A stretch of 37,617 nt of DNA, taken from Membranihabitans marinus (GTDB taxonomy: Bacteria; Bacteroidota; Bacteroidia; Chitinophagales; Saprospiraceae). The notes beneath the pieces are model-generated. The model had not been told where the DNA came from. It did not search any database and saw only the letters and a program-made list of their open reading frames with translations. Both the position numbers and the translations under genes were made by a program. The stretch covers positions 1 through 37,617 of the forward strand of contig NZ_JAJQYA010000044.1 in the NCBI RefSeq assembly GCF_021729155.1, given 5' to 3'. Shown one piece after another: positions 13,107 to 17,423 of the stretch. Every line of letters begins with the position of its first letter. The first letter of the stretch is position 1.

Positions 13107-13140
13107 TTGTCAAAGTTTAATATCTATTTTTATATATTTG
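13107..13140 (+). promoter_or_regulatory. Promoter of the tRNA-like RNA gene
   Basis: TATATTTG at 13133-13140 matches the Bacteroidota -7 consensus TAnnTTTG exactly. A TTG at 13107-13109 could be the -33 element, though the 23-nt spacing is longer than the usual 19-20. The predicted start site, near 13147, is about 27 nt before the tRNA-like body, leaving a short leader of the kind RNase P removes. Confidence 0.6.
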
Positions 13141-13173
13141 CTAATGTAATCAGGAAGTTGGTTATTAATTATA

Positions 13174-13337
13174 CTGTGAGGTGACGAAATTGGCAGCCGT
13201 GCCCCCTTGTCTCGGGGGTAGGGATTACGGGATAAACTGGATATAATGGCTTTTTCTTTAGATTAAAGTCTAGGGTTGACCACTAAAATTGTAGCTTAGC
13301 TAACCGCCCTGTGTAGGTTCGAGTCCTGCTCTCACAG
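13174..13337 (+). ncRNA. tRNA-like RNA with a 94-nt block in place of the variable arm
   Basis: The ends form a perfect acceptor stem: CTGTGAG (13174-13180) pairs with CTCACAG (13331-13337). Inside it lie U8 (13182), a 3-bp D stem (ACG 13184-13186 / CGT 13198-13200) with the conserved GG in the D loop, a 5-bp anticodon stem (13202-13206 / 13214-13218) with the 7-nt loop TTGTCTC, and a T arm (GTAGG 13313-13317 / CCTGC 13325-13329, one wobble) with the canonical loop TTCGAGT. The layout resembles class II tRNAs (Leu/Ser-like D arm), but 94 nt (13219-13312) separate the anticodon stem from the T stem. AGGG (13220-13223) and CCCT (13307-13310) can close this block, CGG/CCG can extend the stem, and two inner hairpins are possible (13248-13270, 13292-13302). 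A promoter and a terminator bracket it. The loop reads as anticodon GUC (Asp), which is odd for a class II body; aminoacylation is not shown. Confidence 0.75.
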
Positions 13338-13350
13338 CAGAAAAACAGAT

Positions 13351-13390
13351 AAAAGGGATGTAATTCAATCTGAATTACATCCCTTTTTTT
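13351..13390 (+). terminator. Strong intrinsic terminator after the tRNA-like RNA, probably bidirectional
   Basis: A perfect 17-bp stem (13351-13367 with 13371-13387, core GGGATGTAATTCA) with a 3-nt ATC loop ends in a run of seven T. The 5' arm begins with four A, so it also serves the convergent leftward operon that ends at 13448. Confidence 0.93.
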
Positions 13391-13447: not shown

Positions 13448-14203
13448 TTACCGCAGGGGTATTTGTACAATTGATTTAGATAAGATCCCTTCATCTTGAA
13501 TAACCTTTATCACATAGTTGCCAGCGGGTAAATGACTGGTATTTACTTCTACTTGTGTTGAAATATTGGAGTCAAAAGATTGCTGCATGACTACTTGACC
13601 CAAAATATTGGAAAGTGAGAAATGCACTTCGCCTTGATTTTGGGATTCGATTTGTAAGGTAAAGCGATCTACATAGGGATTGGGAAAGGTCTTTATGGTG
13701 AAAGATGTGGTGTTGTCTTGATTAGTTGTAGTGACTACATCGCTATTGGCATCAAGACCAAAGCGAACTTCGCTAATCCCAACACAGGGACCTCCATAAT
13801 TGTCTATCGGGGTAAGGATGACATATCGCGCTTGTTTGCCTTCCCAATCGGTGACTTCTTCTCCCTCATAGACTGATTTTCCCGTAGCCATACTCAAAGT
13901 ATAAGTTCCCAATTCTGTCCACAATTGACCATCCAATGAATAGTCAATAGTAAAAGAACGAAGCCCTGAAGGAAGTTCTTCTGGTATGTTTAAATTCCAC
14001 ATTCTCATGGTGCCCAAACGGTAAACAGAACCAAAATCATAAGCTATCCAATGAGTATTGCCCCGATTATTGTTGGGGTTTTTGCTCTGTTCACAGCTGA
14101 TCCAAGAGTCAGACCATGAAGTGTTGTGACGATCGGGAAAGCACTGAGCAGATAAAGTTAATGGAGATAGTATAATAATATAAATGAGGTATAGGTATCG
14201 CAT
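13448..14203 (-). CDS. Secreted discoidin (F5/8 type C)-like protein with T9SS type A sorting domain
   Basis: A signal peptide (MRYLYLIYIIILSPLTLSAQ) is followed by a galactose-binding/discoidin-type beta sandwich (about residues 25-150; WIAYDFGSVYRLGTMRMWN, FTIDYSLDGQLWTELG and a C-terminal ISEVRFG strand). A type IX sorting domain closes the protein (about 172-251; TFPNPYVDRFTLQIES, LSNILGQVV, LPAGNYVIKVI, ending KSIVQIPLR). It should cross the outer membrane through the T9SS and stay on the surface or be released. Discoidin domains usually bind glycans. It is the last gene of an operon with DUF1501 and DUF1800 genes, 3 bp after the former, and may anchor or target them. Confidence 0.88.
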   Translation of the reverse strand: MRYLYLIYIIILSPLTLSAQCFPDRHNTSWSDSWISCEQSKNPNNNRGNTHWIAYDFGSVYRLGTMRMWNLNIPEELPSGLRSFTIDYSLDGQLWTELGTYTLSMATGKSVYEGEEVTDWEGKQARYVILTPIDNYGGPCVGISEVRFGLDANSDVVTTTNQDNTTSFTIKTFPNPYVDRFTLQIESQNQGEVHFSLSNILGQVVMQQSFDSNISTQVEVNTSHLPAGNYVIKVIQDEGILSKSIVQIPLR

Positions 14204-14206
14204 ATT

Positions 14207-15616
14207 TTATTGATTTAAAAATCCAATAGGAGATGAGGTAGATTGTTGTGCGTAGAAGTTTTTGAGATTGGGAAATATGGAGTGGACTTCCGAGGAAGAA
14301 ACCCCGTACCAAAGAGCCAATTCCGCAAAATATTCATCAGCTGATGTAGTAGGGATAAGTACTCCATTTCCTAAATCTAAGTTGGTTTTTAATGCGAGGT
14401 TGGGGTATTGACCATAGATTTTACCTCCATTTACAGCACCTCCCGCCACTATTGTATTTCCACCCCAGGCATGGTCAGTACCGTTGCCATTGGAAGTCAG
14501 GGTTCGAGCGAAATCGGAAATCGTAAAACTGGTCACTTCATCTTGCTTGTTGATAATTTTGAGGGCTTGCTGAAATTCGTAAAGAGCTTTACTCAATACG
14601 GGTAACATTTCATTTTGTTCTTCAATGACATCGTCGTGATGATCCCAGCCACCAAAATTCACAAAGAATATTTGACGGTTAAAACCCAATTCTGCTTGCA
14701 CTGATATCACTTTGGCTATCATCTCAAGATTTTGAGAGAGATAATGTGAAGAAAATAGGTTGCCAAAATCTTGGGCATGTTCCATACCCTCCTGGAATTC
14801 TAGGGTGGCATTGTGGGCATTTTTAATAGTGTTTACATAGGTTTGCTTAAAAATATCTTCGTATTGGTGGTCCATGAAATTCTTTATCGCATCGGTGCGT
14901 ACTTGTTCAATATTCCAATCGTTGTCGAAGCCATAAATCCCAGTAGCACCGTCTGATCCAATAGAAAATTCAAAGATGCCATTGCCTTGTTGAAATACAT
15001 TATTTCCGGAAAGCGAAATGTTCATGGATATATTTTGATTGGTATTCATGGATTGTATCATTTCTGTGACTCTGGCACCCCAACCCGTAGCTGATCGTTC
15101 GTGTGGCAATCCTGTTTGCCATTGTTGGATTTGATCGGCATGAGAGAGAAGGCCTAAGGGTAATCGATGAGAGTTGTTGTGGAATTGTTCCTTGGTCGTG
15201 GGTTCAATCAGTGTCCCCACATTGGATACAAAAGCCAGTTCTCCATTATTGTACATGGTTTGGACTTCAGTCATTCCGGGATGCACTGCATGGGTGGTTA
15301 ATCCACTGCCTTGGTTTCGAAGGGCTAGTAGATCGCTATGTGGGATGGAGAGATTGGATCGAGTTGTTGCATAGTTTTGATAGGCCGATTGTTCATGAGG
15401 TATCAACATATTGAATGAATCGTTTCCCCCGGACAATAGGATGCATACCATTGCTTTGTAATCCCCAGCCGCTTCCACATCAGAATTGTCAATAGCTGCT
15501 GCATTGAGGGCTTTGAGATTGATGATAGAGGAGTAAAATGTACTGTAGCCCAAGGCTGCACAGCCCATTTGACTTAGAAACTTTCTTCTAGATGTTTGAG
15601 AAATATATTTTTTCAT
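14207..15616 (-). CDS. DUF1501 family protein, Tat-exported
   Basis: The 469-residue protein opens with a twin-arginine signal (TSRRKFLSQMGCAALGYS), so it should be exported folded. DUF1501 landmarks follow: KAMVCILLSGGNDSFNMLIP (about 54-73), a middle LPLGLLSHADQIQQWQTG segment, FFVNFGGWDHHDD (about 320) and FTISDFARTLTSNGNGTDHAWGG (about 365-390). These metal-binding-like D/H positions recall the alkaline phosphatase/sulfatase fold proposed for the family. The biochemical role is unknown. It sits 4 bp downstream of the DUF1800 gene, and these two families are regularly found as neighbours, which suggests joint work on an extracellular substrate. Confidence 0.9.
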   Translation of the reverse strand: MKKYISQTSRRKFLSQMGCAALGYSTFYSSIINLKALNAAAIDNSDVEAAGDYKAMVCILLSGGNDSFNMLIPHEQSAYQNYATTRSNLSIPHSDLLALRNQGSGLTTHAVHPGMTEVQTMYNNGELAFVSNVGTLIEPTTKEQFHNNSHRLPLGLLSHADQIQQWQTGLPHERSATGWGARVTEMIQSMNTNQNISMNISLSGNNVFQQGNGIFEFSIGSDGATGIYGFDNDWNIEQVRTDAIKNFMDHQYEDIFKQTYVNTIKNAHNATLEFQEGMEHAQDFGNLFSSHYLSQNLEMIAKVISVQAELGFNRQIFFVNFGGWDHHDDVIEEQNEMLPVLSKALYEFQQALKIINKQDEVTSFTISDFARTLTSNGNGTDHAWGGNTIVAGGAVNGGKIYGQYPNLALKTNLDLGNGVLIPTTSADEYFAELALWYGVSSSEVHSIFPNLKNFYAQQSTSSPIGFLNQ

Positions 15617-15620
15617 GGTC

Positions 15621-17423
15621 TTATTTTAAAATGGTGAAGTCCGGTGATATTAAAGTCAAATACAAGGCAATGGCTGACCTATATTCCAAGTAGTCGCTTC
15701 CTGTATTGCTGGCGCGAAGTTTTTCAATAGCGGTTTTAATATTATTTCGAGTGAATTCACTCATTTGGCCATGAGTATAGAGGATATCTAATTTGTTGAG
15801 CAAGACTTCTGGATCTTTAGCCAATGGTTCACAGCTATTGTAATCGATAAAGGTAGGTTCCACTTCTGTCCAAGCATTAAGCAAACCCCAATTCATGGTC
15901 CATCGATAGATTTGATTCATCATTTCTATGCTGGTTTTGGCGTGATGTATTTGGAATTCAGGGCCGAATAAGTCGCCTTTTTCCTCAAATGAATAGGGTT
16001 GGTAATCGGGTAGATAGAAATTAAATACCGAAGGTGAGGCCAAGGGGATTTGACCTGTACTTTCCCAAAAACCATATCCTGTATTCCAATAAATGCCATT
16101 GATATTATTGAGATCCATGGTTCGAACGACGTGTAAGTACCGAGAGAAGGGATCTCTTAATTTGCCTTGATAAAGAGATTGAATAGAACTGCATTCTCGG
16201 GCTTCAGAGTCTAAGAGCATGGATTTGATCACAGCAGCGAGGTCTCCTCGTTCTCCTTTTCCATTGTTGTTGAATACAGATGCTACCCGATTGATATATC
16301 CAGGGCTAGGATTGGATTTGACTAGGGTTTGAATCAAACGCCGGGCGATAAATGGACCTACGTTGTCGTGCATAAAAAGTATATGCAGGGCAGATCGAAT
16401 ATCTGTCATTCCATCTTGACCAGCGCTTAAGGTGTGACCTAATATTTGTTTTTCACCGGTATCGTGGTATTCCTCATACATCTTCATAGGCGTGGTATAG
16501 TCATTGAGGTAGATGTCTAGGCCGAATCGCGGTTCATCGACCCATTCATTTTCCATGATATTGCCAGGGCCCAAACCGGTAAATACTCTTGCCATTTCAG
16601 ATATGGTATTCATATCATAGGTGGCAATATCGCGACCTTGGCTGTCTTTTTTGTGGGAGCCATCATTGTTGAGTTCGTAAAGACCTATGGTAAATAATTG
16701 CATGACTTCGCGGGCGAAATTTTCATCGGGGTGGAGGTTTTCTTCAGGGTTGGCCTTTGGATTGTTGTAATGACTCAAATAATAGCCCATGGAAGAGTGA
16801 AGGGCTACTTCATTTAATAAGTCTTCAAAATTGCCCAAACCATGGCGGAGGAAGATGTCATAGTAATCGGCTAATGCAACTCCTCTATCTTGCAGATCTG
16901 AATTGAACGATATCACGAATATTTGGCTTAGCGCCCAAGCTACTTTTTGTCGCAAAAGATCCATGTTCATAATATTGTTTTGCCAGTAGGCATATTGAAA
17001 ATGGATCCAATAAGGTCCGAAGAAGTCATCGGGATCTCCCCCGTCATTTAAATGAATTTGATAGGCTTGATCGAAGATGTCATTCATTTGAGGCAACATA
17101 TAGTTTGGTGGTGTGGCTATTTGCTCTTCAATCCAAGCTTCATATCCCAAATCCAATACTCTTTGGATTTCAATTTCATTTCCTCCAAAGGCTGCTTGGG
17201 AGAGAAATCTAGCGCTCGCTTGCTTTTGGCCGTCCAGTCCACTGCCATTGATGGTATTGTCTGCTGCAGCGATGGCTTTTCTTCCTGGGGGTTGGAAATC
17301 ACTACTGCTATATACGGTCACATTGGGATGCTGTTGATCACCTATGTAAGCATTTGAATCTTGAGCAAATGAATGGAAAGTAAGGATAGATAGCAATATA
17401 ATGAGGTAGGGGTTACTTTTCAT
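15621..17423 (-). CDS. DUF1800 family secreted protein
   Basis: A 600-residue protein with signal peptide (MKSNPYLIILLSILTFHSFAQ). DUF1800 hallmarks are ASARFLSQAAFGGNEIEIQRVLDLG (about 65-90, split by a short helix), the middle ENFAREVMQLFTIGLYELN segment (about 230), FTGLGPGNI, and a late KLRDPFSRYLHVVRTM plus LASPSVFNFYLPDY. The family is of unknown function and is usually paired with DUF1501, as here. First gene of the leftward three-gene operon; no clear promoter of the TAnnTTTG type was found upstream, where a C-rich sense strand lies instead. Confidence 0.9.
   Translation of the reverse strand: MKSNPYLIILLSILTFHSFAQDSNAYIGDQQHPNVTVYSSSDFQPPGRKAIAAADNTINGSGLDGQKQASARFLSQAAFGGNEIEIQRVLDLGYEAWIEEQIATPPNYMLPQMNDIFDQAYQIHLNDGGDPDDFFGPYWIHFQYAYWQNNIMNMDLLRQKVAWALSQIFVISFNSDLQDRGVALADYYDIFLRHGLGNFEDLLNEVALHSSMGYYLSHYNNPKANPEENLHPDENFAREVMQLFTIGLYELNNDGSHKKDSQGRDIATYDMNTISEMARVFTGLGPGNIMENEWVDEPRFGLDIYLNDYTTPMKMYEEYHDTGEKQILGHTLSAGQDGMTDIRSALHILFMHDNVGPFIARRLIQTLVKSNPSPGYINRVASVFNNNGKGERGDLAAVIKSMLLDSEARECSSIQSLYQGKLRDPFSRYLHVVRTMDLNNINGIYWNTGYGFWESTGQIPLASPSVFNFYLPDYQPYSFEEKGDLFGPEFQIHHAKTSIEMMNQIYRWTMNWGLLNAWTEVEPTFIDYNSCEPLAKDPEVLLNKLDILYTHGQMSEFTRNNIKTAIEKLRASNTGSDYLEYRSAIALYLTLISPDFTILK

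What the first reader, a model, noticed from the sequence alone, without database searches (positions are those of the whole stretch)
13107..13390. Stand-alone tRNA-like RNA gene with a 94-nt block instead of a variable arm
Seen directly: a tRNA frame (8-bp potential acceptor, U8, D-loop GG, 5-bp anticodon stem, TTCGAGT T loop) closed by a 94-nt segment, behind a TATATTTG promoter and ahead of a perfect 17-bp terminator. Class II variable arms in bacteria are usually 10-25 nt. Group I introns in tRNAs sit in the anticodon loop and are far longer, and no intron core motifs are visible here. The intact core, promoter and terminator argue against a dead pseudogene. It could be an expanded-arm tRNA, a tRNA-mimic regulatory RNA, or an RNA matured by RNase P (rnpA is 10 kb away). 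The anticodon reads GUC with U at 37, which is unusual.
Basis: partly seen in the sequence, partly recalled or inferred. Interest (0 to 1): 0.85.

Follow-up and report, generated by a model that had tools for sequence, protein, structure and literature searches.

The report
Non-decoding tRNA with aspartate-to-asparagine marks
The window holds one copy of an apparently undescribed, conserved tRNA-shaped RNA that looks built to be loaded with aspartate and converted to asparagine rather than to read codons, which would be a new job for a tRNA.

Summary
Window 13175-13337 is a full tRNA cloverleaf with a 94-nt block in the variable arm, a promoter-like box and a 17-bp terminator. It is one of four copies in this genome and belongs to a conserved RNA family, so far seen only in Bacteroidota and four viral contigs, with no Rfam match. 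The block is a structured arm of 39-149 nt (213 distinct units); 21 of 33 pairs show compensating changes.

The family keeps the five strong aspartate-identity nucleotides (G34 U35 C36 C38 G73) while decoding positions 33 and 37 drift. It has U1-A72 and no 20a, the published marks for amidating Asp-tRNA to Asn-tRNA. An AsnC-like regulator lies divergently upstream in 57 of 94 testable loci. GatB occurs in 28 of 29 genomes with the RNA and GlnRS, against 6 of 21 without the RNA.

Best reading: an AsnC-linked, non-decoding tRNA charged by AspRS and amidated by GatCAB to carry asparagine. Charging and amidation are inferred; the fate of the asparagine and the role of the arm are open.

The parts
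13133..13140 (+). TATATTTG, Bacteroidota -7-type promoter box (TAnnTTTG)
   Evidence: Sequence; TAnnTTTG lies within 80 nt upstream in 100 of 209 distinct units with enough upstream sequence. The name of the box is recalled.
13171..13174 (+). 5' leader motif ATAC (A-4, A-2, Y-1)
   Evidence: A-4 in 195 of 213 and A-2 in 197 of 213 distinct units; A-4 in 10 of 29 and A-2 in 14 of 29 own tRNA leaders
13175..13181 (+). acceptor stem 5' strand, U1 G2 U3 conserved
   Evidence: U1-A72 212/213, G2-C71 213/213, U3-A70 212/213; pairs 4-7 covary
13184..13200 (+). D-arm, tRNA-Leu-like, one nucleotide between G18G19 and A21 (no 20a)
   Evidence: 213 of 213
13202..13218 (+). anticodon arm; anticodon GUC at 13209-13211, C38 at 13213
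   Evidence: G34 103/104, U35, C36 and C38 104/104 readable loops
13219..13312 (+). 94-nt structured variable arm replacing the usual variable arm
   Evidence: homologous block of 39-149 nt in 213 distinct units
13220..13223 (+). P1 5' strand (pairs with 13307-13310)
   Evidence: 100% of cells paired, 3 of 4 pairs changed on both sides
13228..13230 (+). P2 5' strand (pairs with 13304-13306)
   Evidence: 3 of 3 pairs changed on both sides, 92.2% of cells paired
13231..13236 (+). internal loop GAUAAA, facing CUAA at 13300-13303
   Evidence: conserved columns in A1 and A3
13237..13243 (+). P3 5' strand (pairs with 13292-13296 and 13299)
   Evidence: 6 of 6 pairs changed on both sides, 82.9% of cells paired; the window copy itself has one A-G mismatch here
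13273..13283 (+). conserved distal motif GGGUUGACCAC of the long form
   Evidence: near-invariant in the 49 long units of A3; GACCAC in 123 of 213 distinct units
13313..13329 (+). T-arm with TTCGAGT loop
   Evidence: 99.7% of cells paired
13330..13338 (+). acceptor stem 3' strand, discriminator G73 and encoded C74
   Evidence: GC tail in 213 of 213 distinct units; the 29 own tRNAs printed also encode C74, most without CCA
13351..13390 (+). intrinsic terminator, 17-bp stem and T-run
   Evidence: terminator-like hairpin behind 46 of 209 distinct units against 1 of 209 with one shuffle of each

Best explanation
A dedicated, non-decoding class II tRNA. It is matured like a tRNA (RNase P; CCA added behind the encoded C74), aspartylated by the ordinary AspRS through G34 U35 C36 C38 G73, and then amidated by GatCAB, which reads U1-A72 and the absence of 20a, giving Asn-RNA. 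An AsnC-type regulator would tie its supply to asparagine status. Drift at 33 and 37 and the giant arm would keep Asn-RNA from putting Asn at Asp codons. The asparagine is then released, transferred, or read out as a signal; release or transfer is my first choice. SHOWN: the RNA family, its structure, the conserved nucleotides, AsnC linkage, and GatB co-occurrence. INFERRED: expression, control by AsnC, charging, amidation, exclusion from the ribosome, and the final step.
For: Family and structure. Asp identity is described as five strong determinants, G73 G34 U35 C36 C38 (PMC9976931, passage). In hits found by BLAST or the covariance model, not by an exact loop pattern, G34 holds in 103 of 104 readable loops, U35, C36 and C38 in 104 of 104, and G73 in 103 of 103, while 33 is not U in 9 and 37 is U/C/G/A in 97/4/2/1. 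Amidation identity is U1-A72, with G1-C72 and U20a as antideterminants (same paper, passage): U1-A72 in 212 of 213, no 20a in 213 of 213. The host's own tRNA-Asp has G1-C72 and U20a, tRNA-Asn G1-C72, tRNA-Gln A1-U72, and none of its tRNAs found begins with U. GatB in 50 GlnRS+ genomes (host included): RNA+ 28/29, RNA- 6/21, Fisher p 3e-7; in the 39 at least 95% complete: 23/23 against 2/16. Same genus: G000 and G002 have RNA and GatB, G001 neither. The host has AsnRS and GlnRS too, so its GatCAB otherwise lacks an obvious tRNA. Divergent AsnC-like gene in 57 of 94 loci; best NCBIfam model is AsnC for 3 of 3 regulators tested. RNA and AsnC-like gene co-occur (27/3/10/20 in 60 genomes, p 5e-6).
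Against: No transcript, charging or amidation data exist here. Two further tRNA-Asp features are missing: G10 (here A10) and G1-C72. Class II synthetases approach from the variable-loop side (recalled), so the giant arm could hinder AspRS. The host's four copies do not lie next to asnC. The three regulators score below NCBIfam's AsnC cut-off (156-179 against 227 bits). The host has AsnA and an AsnB-type gene, so it does not depend on this for asparagine. GatB could serve a U1-A72 tRNA-Asn by the classical route: PMC4206432 (passages) lists Bacteroidetes among such genera, and I read tRNA-Asn only in the host. RNA+ G022 shows no AsnRS, so there GatB may serve tRNA-Asn. GatB without RNA in two near-complete GlnRS+ genomes (G007, G071) and RNA without GatB in G021 (89% complete). 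Ten of 60 genomes have an AsnC-like gene without the RNA. Only GatB was tested, not GatA or GatC. Genomes are related, so the p-values overstate. One CM hit has loop CTCTCTC (CUC).
Confidence: 0.55

Rival explanations
1. A regulatory sensor or decoy. AspRS (and perhaps GatCAB) binds or charges the RNA, but the product is a signal: the charged state or the structured arm controls a target, with AsnC setting the dose. No asparagine flux is meant.
For: AsnC linkage; highly structured, conserved arm; hosts often also have AsnA or AsnB; tandem and dispersed copies. A non-translating tRNA-like regulatory element has precedent in B. cereus tRNAOther (PMC3399842, abstract).
Against: A pure decoy would not need the amidation marks, the encoded tRNA 3' end, or GatB in 28 of 29 GlnRS+ RNA+ genomes. 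No target is known.
Confidence: 0.25
2. A serine-charged class II tRNA: SerRS, which ignores the anticodon, charges it through the long arm and G73, as it does tRNA-Sec.
For: The table in PMC9976931 (passage) gives bacterial Ser identity as G73, C72, G2-C71, R4-Y69, C11-G24 and a large variable region; G73, G2-C71 and R4-Y69 (59 of 60 units) fit the family.
Against: C72 and C11-G24 do not fit: the RNA has A72 and U11-A24 in 54 of 60 units. It does not explain the fixed G34 U35 C36 C38, U1-A72, AsnC or GatB. The D-arm is Leu-like.
Confidence: 0.08
3. A real tRNA-Asp isoacceptor with a huge variable arm that decodes GAY codons.
For: Intact cloverleaf and GUC anticodon; in two viral contigs it sits near ordinary tRNA genes.
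Against: U33 missing in 9 of 104 loops and a purine at 37 in only 3 of 104. The host has a normal tRNA-Asp(GUC). If amidated it would misincorporate Asn.
Confidence: 0.04
4. A dead tRNA copy or a tRNA-derived mobile repeat.
For: Several copies in some genomes, in tandem or dispersed.
Against: Changes on both sides in 21 of 33 pairs, near-invariant functional nucleotides, conserved gene neighbour.
Confidence: 0.02

Closest known systems
tRNA-dependent asparagine synthesis (AspRS + GatCAB on tRNA-Asn; transamidosome; D. radiodurans, T. thermophilus, B. bacteriovorus)
   Same: AspRS charges an RNA with U1-A72 and GatCAB amidates it; found in genomes that also have AsnRS and GlnRS (PMC4206432, abstract and passages).
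   Different: There the carrier is tRNA-Asn (GUU) and a non-discriminating AspRS is needed. In that paper's Table 2 all 67 genera with AsnRS, GlnRS and GatCAB have a U1-A72 tRNA-Asn. Here the host tRNA-Asn is G1-C72 and the proposed carrier is a separate GUC RNA with a giant arm.
tRNA-Leu(GAG), class II tRNA
   Same: Ordinary tRNAs that the family model hits at 53-61 bits are tRNA-Leu(GAG) in 8 of 8 checked; similar D-arm.
   Different: A73 is listed for Leu (table in PMC9976931, passage), here G73; anticodon GUC; arm 39-149 nt.
B. cereus tRNAOther (pseudo-tRNA)
   Same: tRNA-like RNA outside translation (PMC3399842, abstract).
   Different: Described in one species as part of a larger transcript; no aspartate or amidation marks in the abstract, which is all I read.
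tRNA-Sec and allo-tRNAs
   Same: Unusual class II tRNAs with a long variable arm (PMC7609411, passages).
   Different: They decode; their arm is far shorter and their acceptor branch differs (recalled).
tmRNA and YrlA (bacterial Y RNA)
   Same: tRNA mimicry fused to another RNA domain.
   Different: No Rfam match at gathering score on the window copy or on the RNA in 15 further loci; the full anticodon arm is kept; TROVE/Ro protein is missing from 94 of 100 genomes searched, the host among them.

Membership tests
Elongator tRNA | Cloverleaf with acceptor, D, anticodon and T arms plus U8, G18G19, T-loop | tested here: met
Elongator tRNA | U33 and purine 37 for decoding | tested here: not met
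   33 not U in 9 of 104, 37 purine in 3 of 104 loops; the window copy has U33 but U37
Elongator tRNA | Recognised by tRNA models (ARAGORN, RF00005) | tested here: not met
   no match on the RNA; in ARAGORN over all held loci the only Asp calls are the host's own tRNA-Asp and the short G168 variant
Elongator tRNA | tRNA-type 3' end (discriminator plus C74, CCA encoded or added) | tested here: met
   GC tail 213 of 213, as in the 29 own tRNAs printed
AspRS substrate (aspartate identity) | Five strong determinants G34 U35 C36 C38 G73 | tested here: met
AspRS substrate (aspartate identity) | G10 and G1-C72 of bacterial tRNA-Asp | tested here: not met
   A10 in the window copy and 55 A-U pairs of 60; U1-A72
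AspRS substrate (aspartate identity) | Aspartylation | not testable with these tools
   needs biochemistry
GatCAB substrate | U1-A72 | tested here: met
   212 of 213
GatCAB substrate | No G1-C72 and no U20a antideterminant | tested here: met
   one nucleotide between G18G19 and A21 in 213 of 213
GatCAB substrate | GatCAB present in the host | tested here: inconclusive
   GatB present in own genome and in 29 of 30 RNA+ genomes; GatA and GatC not searched
tmRNA | G3-U70 alanine acceptor and mRNA-like tag (recalled) | tested here: not met
   U3-A70 in 212 of 213; no tmRNA by ARAGORN or Rfam in the window
YrlA / Y RNA | Match to the family and a Ro/TROVE partner | tested here: not met
tRNA with group I intron | Intron core, insertion in anticodon loop | tested here: not met
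   No Rfam intron match; the insert lies between anticodon stem and T-stem

The most novel reading that the evidence does not exclude
A non-decoding tRNA-like RNA that serves as a dedicated RNA cofactor for asparagine: AspRS loads it, GatCAB amidates it, and it delivers asparagine to metabolism or to a non-ribosomal acceptor under AsnC control. The giant arm is a handling domain that keeps it out of the ribosome. In seven of the 30 RNA+ genomes no AsnA and no AsnB over cut-off were found (G011, G013, G028, G033, G036, G061, G076; by hand; three of them are less than 95% complete), so it could be the only asparagine route in some of them.
Probability: 0.35. Interest if true: 0.95.

Novelty: categorically new. 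Interest (0 to 1): 0.88.

Why it matters
A tRNA relative specialised for amino-acid chemistry instead of decoding would separate two halves of tRNA identity in nature: synthetase and amidotransferase marks kept, codon-reading features lost. It would also explain why many Bacteroidota with both AsnRS and GlnRS still keep GatB, and it would give an AsnC-type regulator an RNA target in the place where E. coli has asnA (recalled). I found no description of it: Rfam 15 has no match, and nothing in the listings of ten paper searches describes it. Those searches cover an open-licence library only, and I saw listings and passages of a few papers. Caveat on the rating: if it proves to be a simple variant of tRNA-dependent amidation, 'new variant of a known kind' would be fairer.

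Tried and rejected
YrlA/Y RNA: I first thought GGGUUGACCAC resembled a Ro-binding strand. TROVE is in 6 of 100 genomes searched and not in the host, while the DNA search matched 43 of the same 100. Rejected.

Sole asparagine synthesis route in the host: rejected, since the host has AsnA and an AsnB-type gene; AsnA shows no link with the RNA (6 of 30 RNA+, 5 of 30 RNA-).

Duplicated AspRS: no genome of 60 lists two separate places over the cut-off.

Plasmid or phage element: no match in plasmids or annotated phages by blastn; four IMG/VR contigs carry it.

AsnC binding site: k-mers such as ATTCAAAA are commoner upstream of asnC-linked copies than of others (14 of 65 against 3 of 91); too weak to call a site.

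The CM tally of 289 of 296 genomes is inflated by ordinary class II tRNAs. Counting matches of at least 86 bits by hand gives 30 of 296: same family 5/5, same order 8/10, same class 15/58, rest of phylum 2/223. Only ten candidates per genome were scored, so this is a lower bound.

Rows dropped: the 213 distinct units come from a script that demands a loop pattern and an insert of at least 20 nt; truncated and odd units were lost (14 loci had none). Loop statistics therefore rest on 106 CM hits in 70 sources (101 full length, 98 of those distinct; some loci overlap), of which 2 lacked the loop. That set was found by BLAST or the CM, whose queries contain the loop too. AsnC linkage was counted on the 94 of 106 named loci with units that have at least 800 nt upstream; those loci came from a pattern that includes the anticodon arm.

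Full report
What is there. The window copy spans 13175-13337 on the + strand (U1 to G73). Standard tRNA tools miss it. Alone it does not fold better than shuffles, so the case rests on comparison.

A conserved RNA family. A DNA search matched 43 of 100 genomes (the host included; a few matches are short) and showed three more copies in the host; the four host copies are 75-91% identical. The covariance model finds the RNA in 30 of 60 genomes, host included. On 60 diverse units a 33-pair structure has 96.1% of cells paired, 21 pairs changed on both sides and covariation far above shuffled and slid controls. In the phylum survey the model separates family members (86 bits and more) from the next hits (65 bits and less). 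The eight of those next hits that I checked, at 53-61 bits, are tRNA-Leu(GAG), and the D-arm is Leu-like, so the body probably comes from a class II tRNA-Leu (inference).

The block. It ranges from 39 to 149 nt over 213 distinct units. It begins with P1 (GGGG/CCCC type) and P2, then a conserved internal loop GAUAAA/CUAA closed by a pair that appears as C-G, U-A or G-C, then P3. In 51 of 213 units the insert is 60 nt or less; 123 carry a distal GACCAC-containing domain (alignment A3). In the named loci 31 of 106 hold two or more units, often about 130-320 bp apart.

What is held constant. The review PMC9976931 (passages) says that aspartate identity rests mainly on G73, G34, U35, C36 and C38. 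It also says that amidation of Asp-tRNA-Asn is conferred by U1-A72 and prevented in Asp-tRNA-Asp by G1-C72 and U20a. In hits found by BLAST or the model rather than by an exact loop pattern, G34 holds in 103 of 104, U35, C36 and C38 in 104 of 104, G73 in 103 of 103; position 33 is not U in 9 and position 37 is U 97, C 4, G 2, A 1. U1-A72 holds in 212 of 213 and exactly one nucleotide separates G18G19 from A21 in 213 of 213, so there is no 20a. The family thus keeps what AspRS and GatCAB read and loosens what the ribosome needs. Not met for aspartate: G10 and G1-C72.

The 3' end. All 213 units end in G73-C74 and only 37 encode CCA. The host's ordinary tRNAs behave alike: the 29 printed encode C74, mostly without CCA. 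This fits maturation by the normal tRNA pathway. The leader is unusual: A at -4 in 195 and at -2 in 197 of 213, against 10 of 29 and 14 of 29 in own tRNAs. I read it as an RNase P preference, from recalled work on A-4; untested.

Neighbour. Of 94 named loci with at least 800 nt upstream, 57 have a divergent Lrp/AsnC-family gene within 600 bp; in each of the 77 loci listed with a hit (some loci overlap) the best hit is divergent. Three such proteins, one each from three loci, hit NCBIfam AsnC best (156, 163 and 179 bits; next best at most 86), though below its cut-off of 227. In E. coli AsnC controls the divergent asparagine synthetase gene asnA (recalled). The host has an AsnC-like gene elsewhere (G000:C22, 52% identity), not beside any of its four copies. 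Over 60 genomes, RNA and AsnC-like gene (44% identity or more): both 27, RNA only 3, AsnC only 10, neither 20.

GatCAB. GatB occurs in 29 of 30 RNA+ and 14 of 30 RNA- genomes. Ten genomes lack GlnRS and would need GatCAB for glutamine. In the other 50, GatB is in 28 of 29 RNA+ and 6 of 21 RNA- genomes; among the 39 at least 95% complete it is 23 of 23 and 2 of 16. In the host's genus G000 and G002 have RNA and GatB and G001 neither. AsnRS is over cut-off in 57 of 60, the host included; G029 and G074 show partial matches and G022, which has the RNA, shows none, so its GatB may serve tRNA-Asn. PMC4206432 (abstract and passages) reports in its Table 2 that all 67 surveyed genera with AsnRS, GlnRS and GatCAB have a U1-A72 tRNA-Asn, Bacteroidetes among them. 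The host does not: its tRNA-Asn is G1-C72 and its tRNA-Gln A1-U72, and none of its tRNAs found starts with U. This RNA is the only candidate substrate I can name for the host's GatCAB. I did not read tRNA-Asn in the relatives, GatA and GatC were not searched, and the genomes are related, so the p-values are optimistic.

Mechanism and limits. Most likely AspRS charges the RNA, GatCAB converts Asp to Asn on it, and an AsnC-type regulator couples its supply to asparagine. The arm and the loss of decoding features would prevent Asn from entering proteins at Asp codons. Against this stand the absence of any expression or biochemistry, the missing G10 and G1-C72, a possible clash of the arm with AspRS, and the presence of AsnA and an AsnB-type gene in the host. 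In seven RNA+ genomes neither was found over cut-off, against two RNA- genomes (G007, G009; by hand); this difference was not tested.

Phages. Four IMG/VR contigs hold a copy. One of them (L200) also encodes a phage-type DNA polymerase and an endolysin, and two (L201, L202) hold it near ordinary tRNA genes.

Placement. It is not a decoding tRNA, tmRNA, Y RNA or tRNA intron by the tests listed. It works like the carrier of tRNA-dependent amidation but is a separate, non-decoding RNA.

Noticed in passing
L252:4338-4414 (genome G168): A short relative without the giant arm: U1-A72, G73, C74, loop CTATCTC (AUC). It may be an ancestral or reduced form; no AsnC-like match at E 1e-3 within the 9-kb locus.
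   Followed up: partly
L199, L200, L201, L202 (IMG/VR contigs): Viral contigs carry the RNA; L201 and L202 have ordinary tRNA genes near it and L200 has phage-type DNA polymerase and endolysin genes. Why phages carry a non-decoding tRNA is unexplained.
   Followed up: partly
window 13171-13174 and leaders of the family: Leader motif AYAY just before U1, far more conserved than in ordinary tRNA leaders of the host.
   Followed up: partly
L203 and L205: Loci around TROVE-domain (Ro60-like) genes of two relatives also hold predicted tRNA genes, one in each beginning with U.
   Followed up: no
named loci L081-L198, flanks of the RNA: A TrmB-like gene (tRNA m7G46 methyltransferase, named by eye) lies downstream in 16 of 112 loci, and a mixed cluster of permease-like and glycosyltransferase-like ORFs upstream in 26 of 112; probably shared synteny.
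   Followed up: no
window 13451-17423 (-): A DUF1501 gene beside a DUF1800 gene, with a Por-secretion-tail protein next to it.
   Followed up: no
L172:2766-2809 (-): An Acido-Lenti-1 RNA match just over gathering score in a Bacteroidota contig.
   Followed up: no
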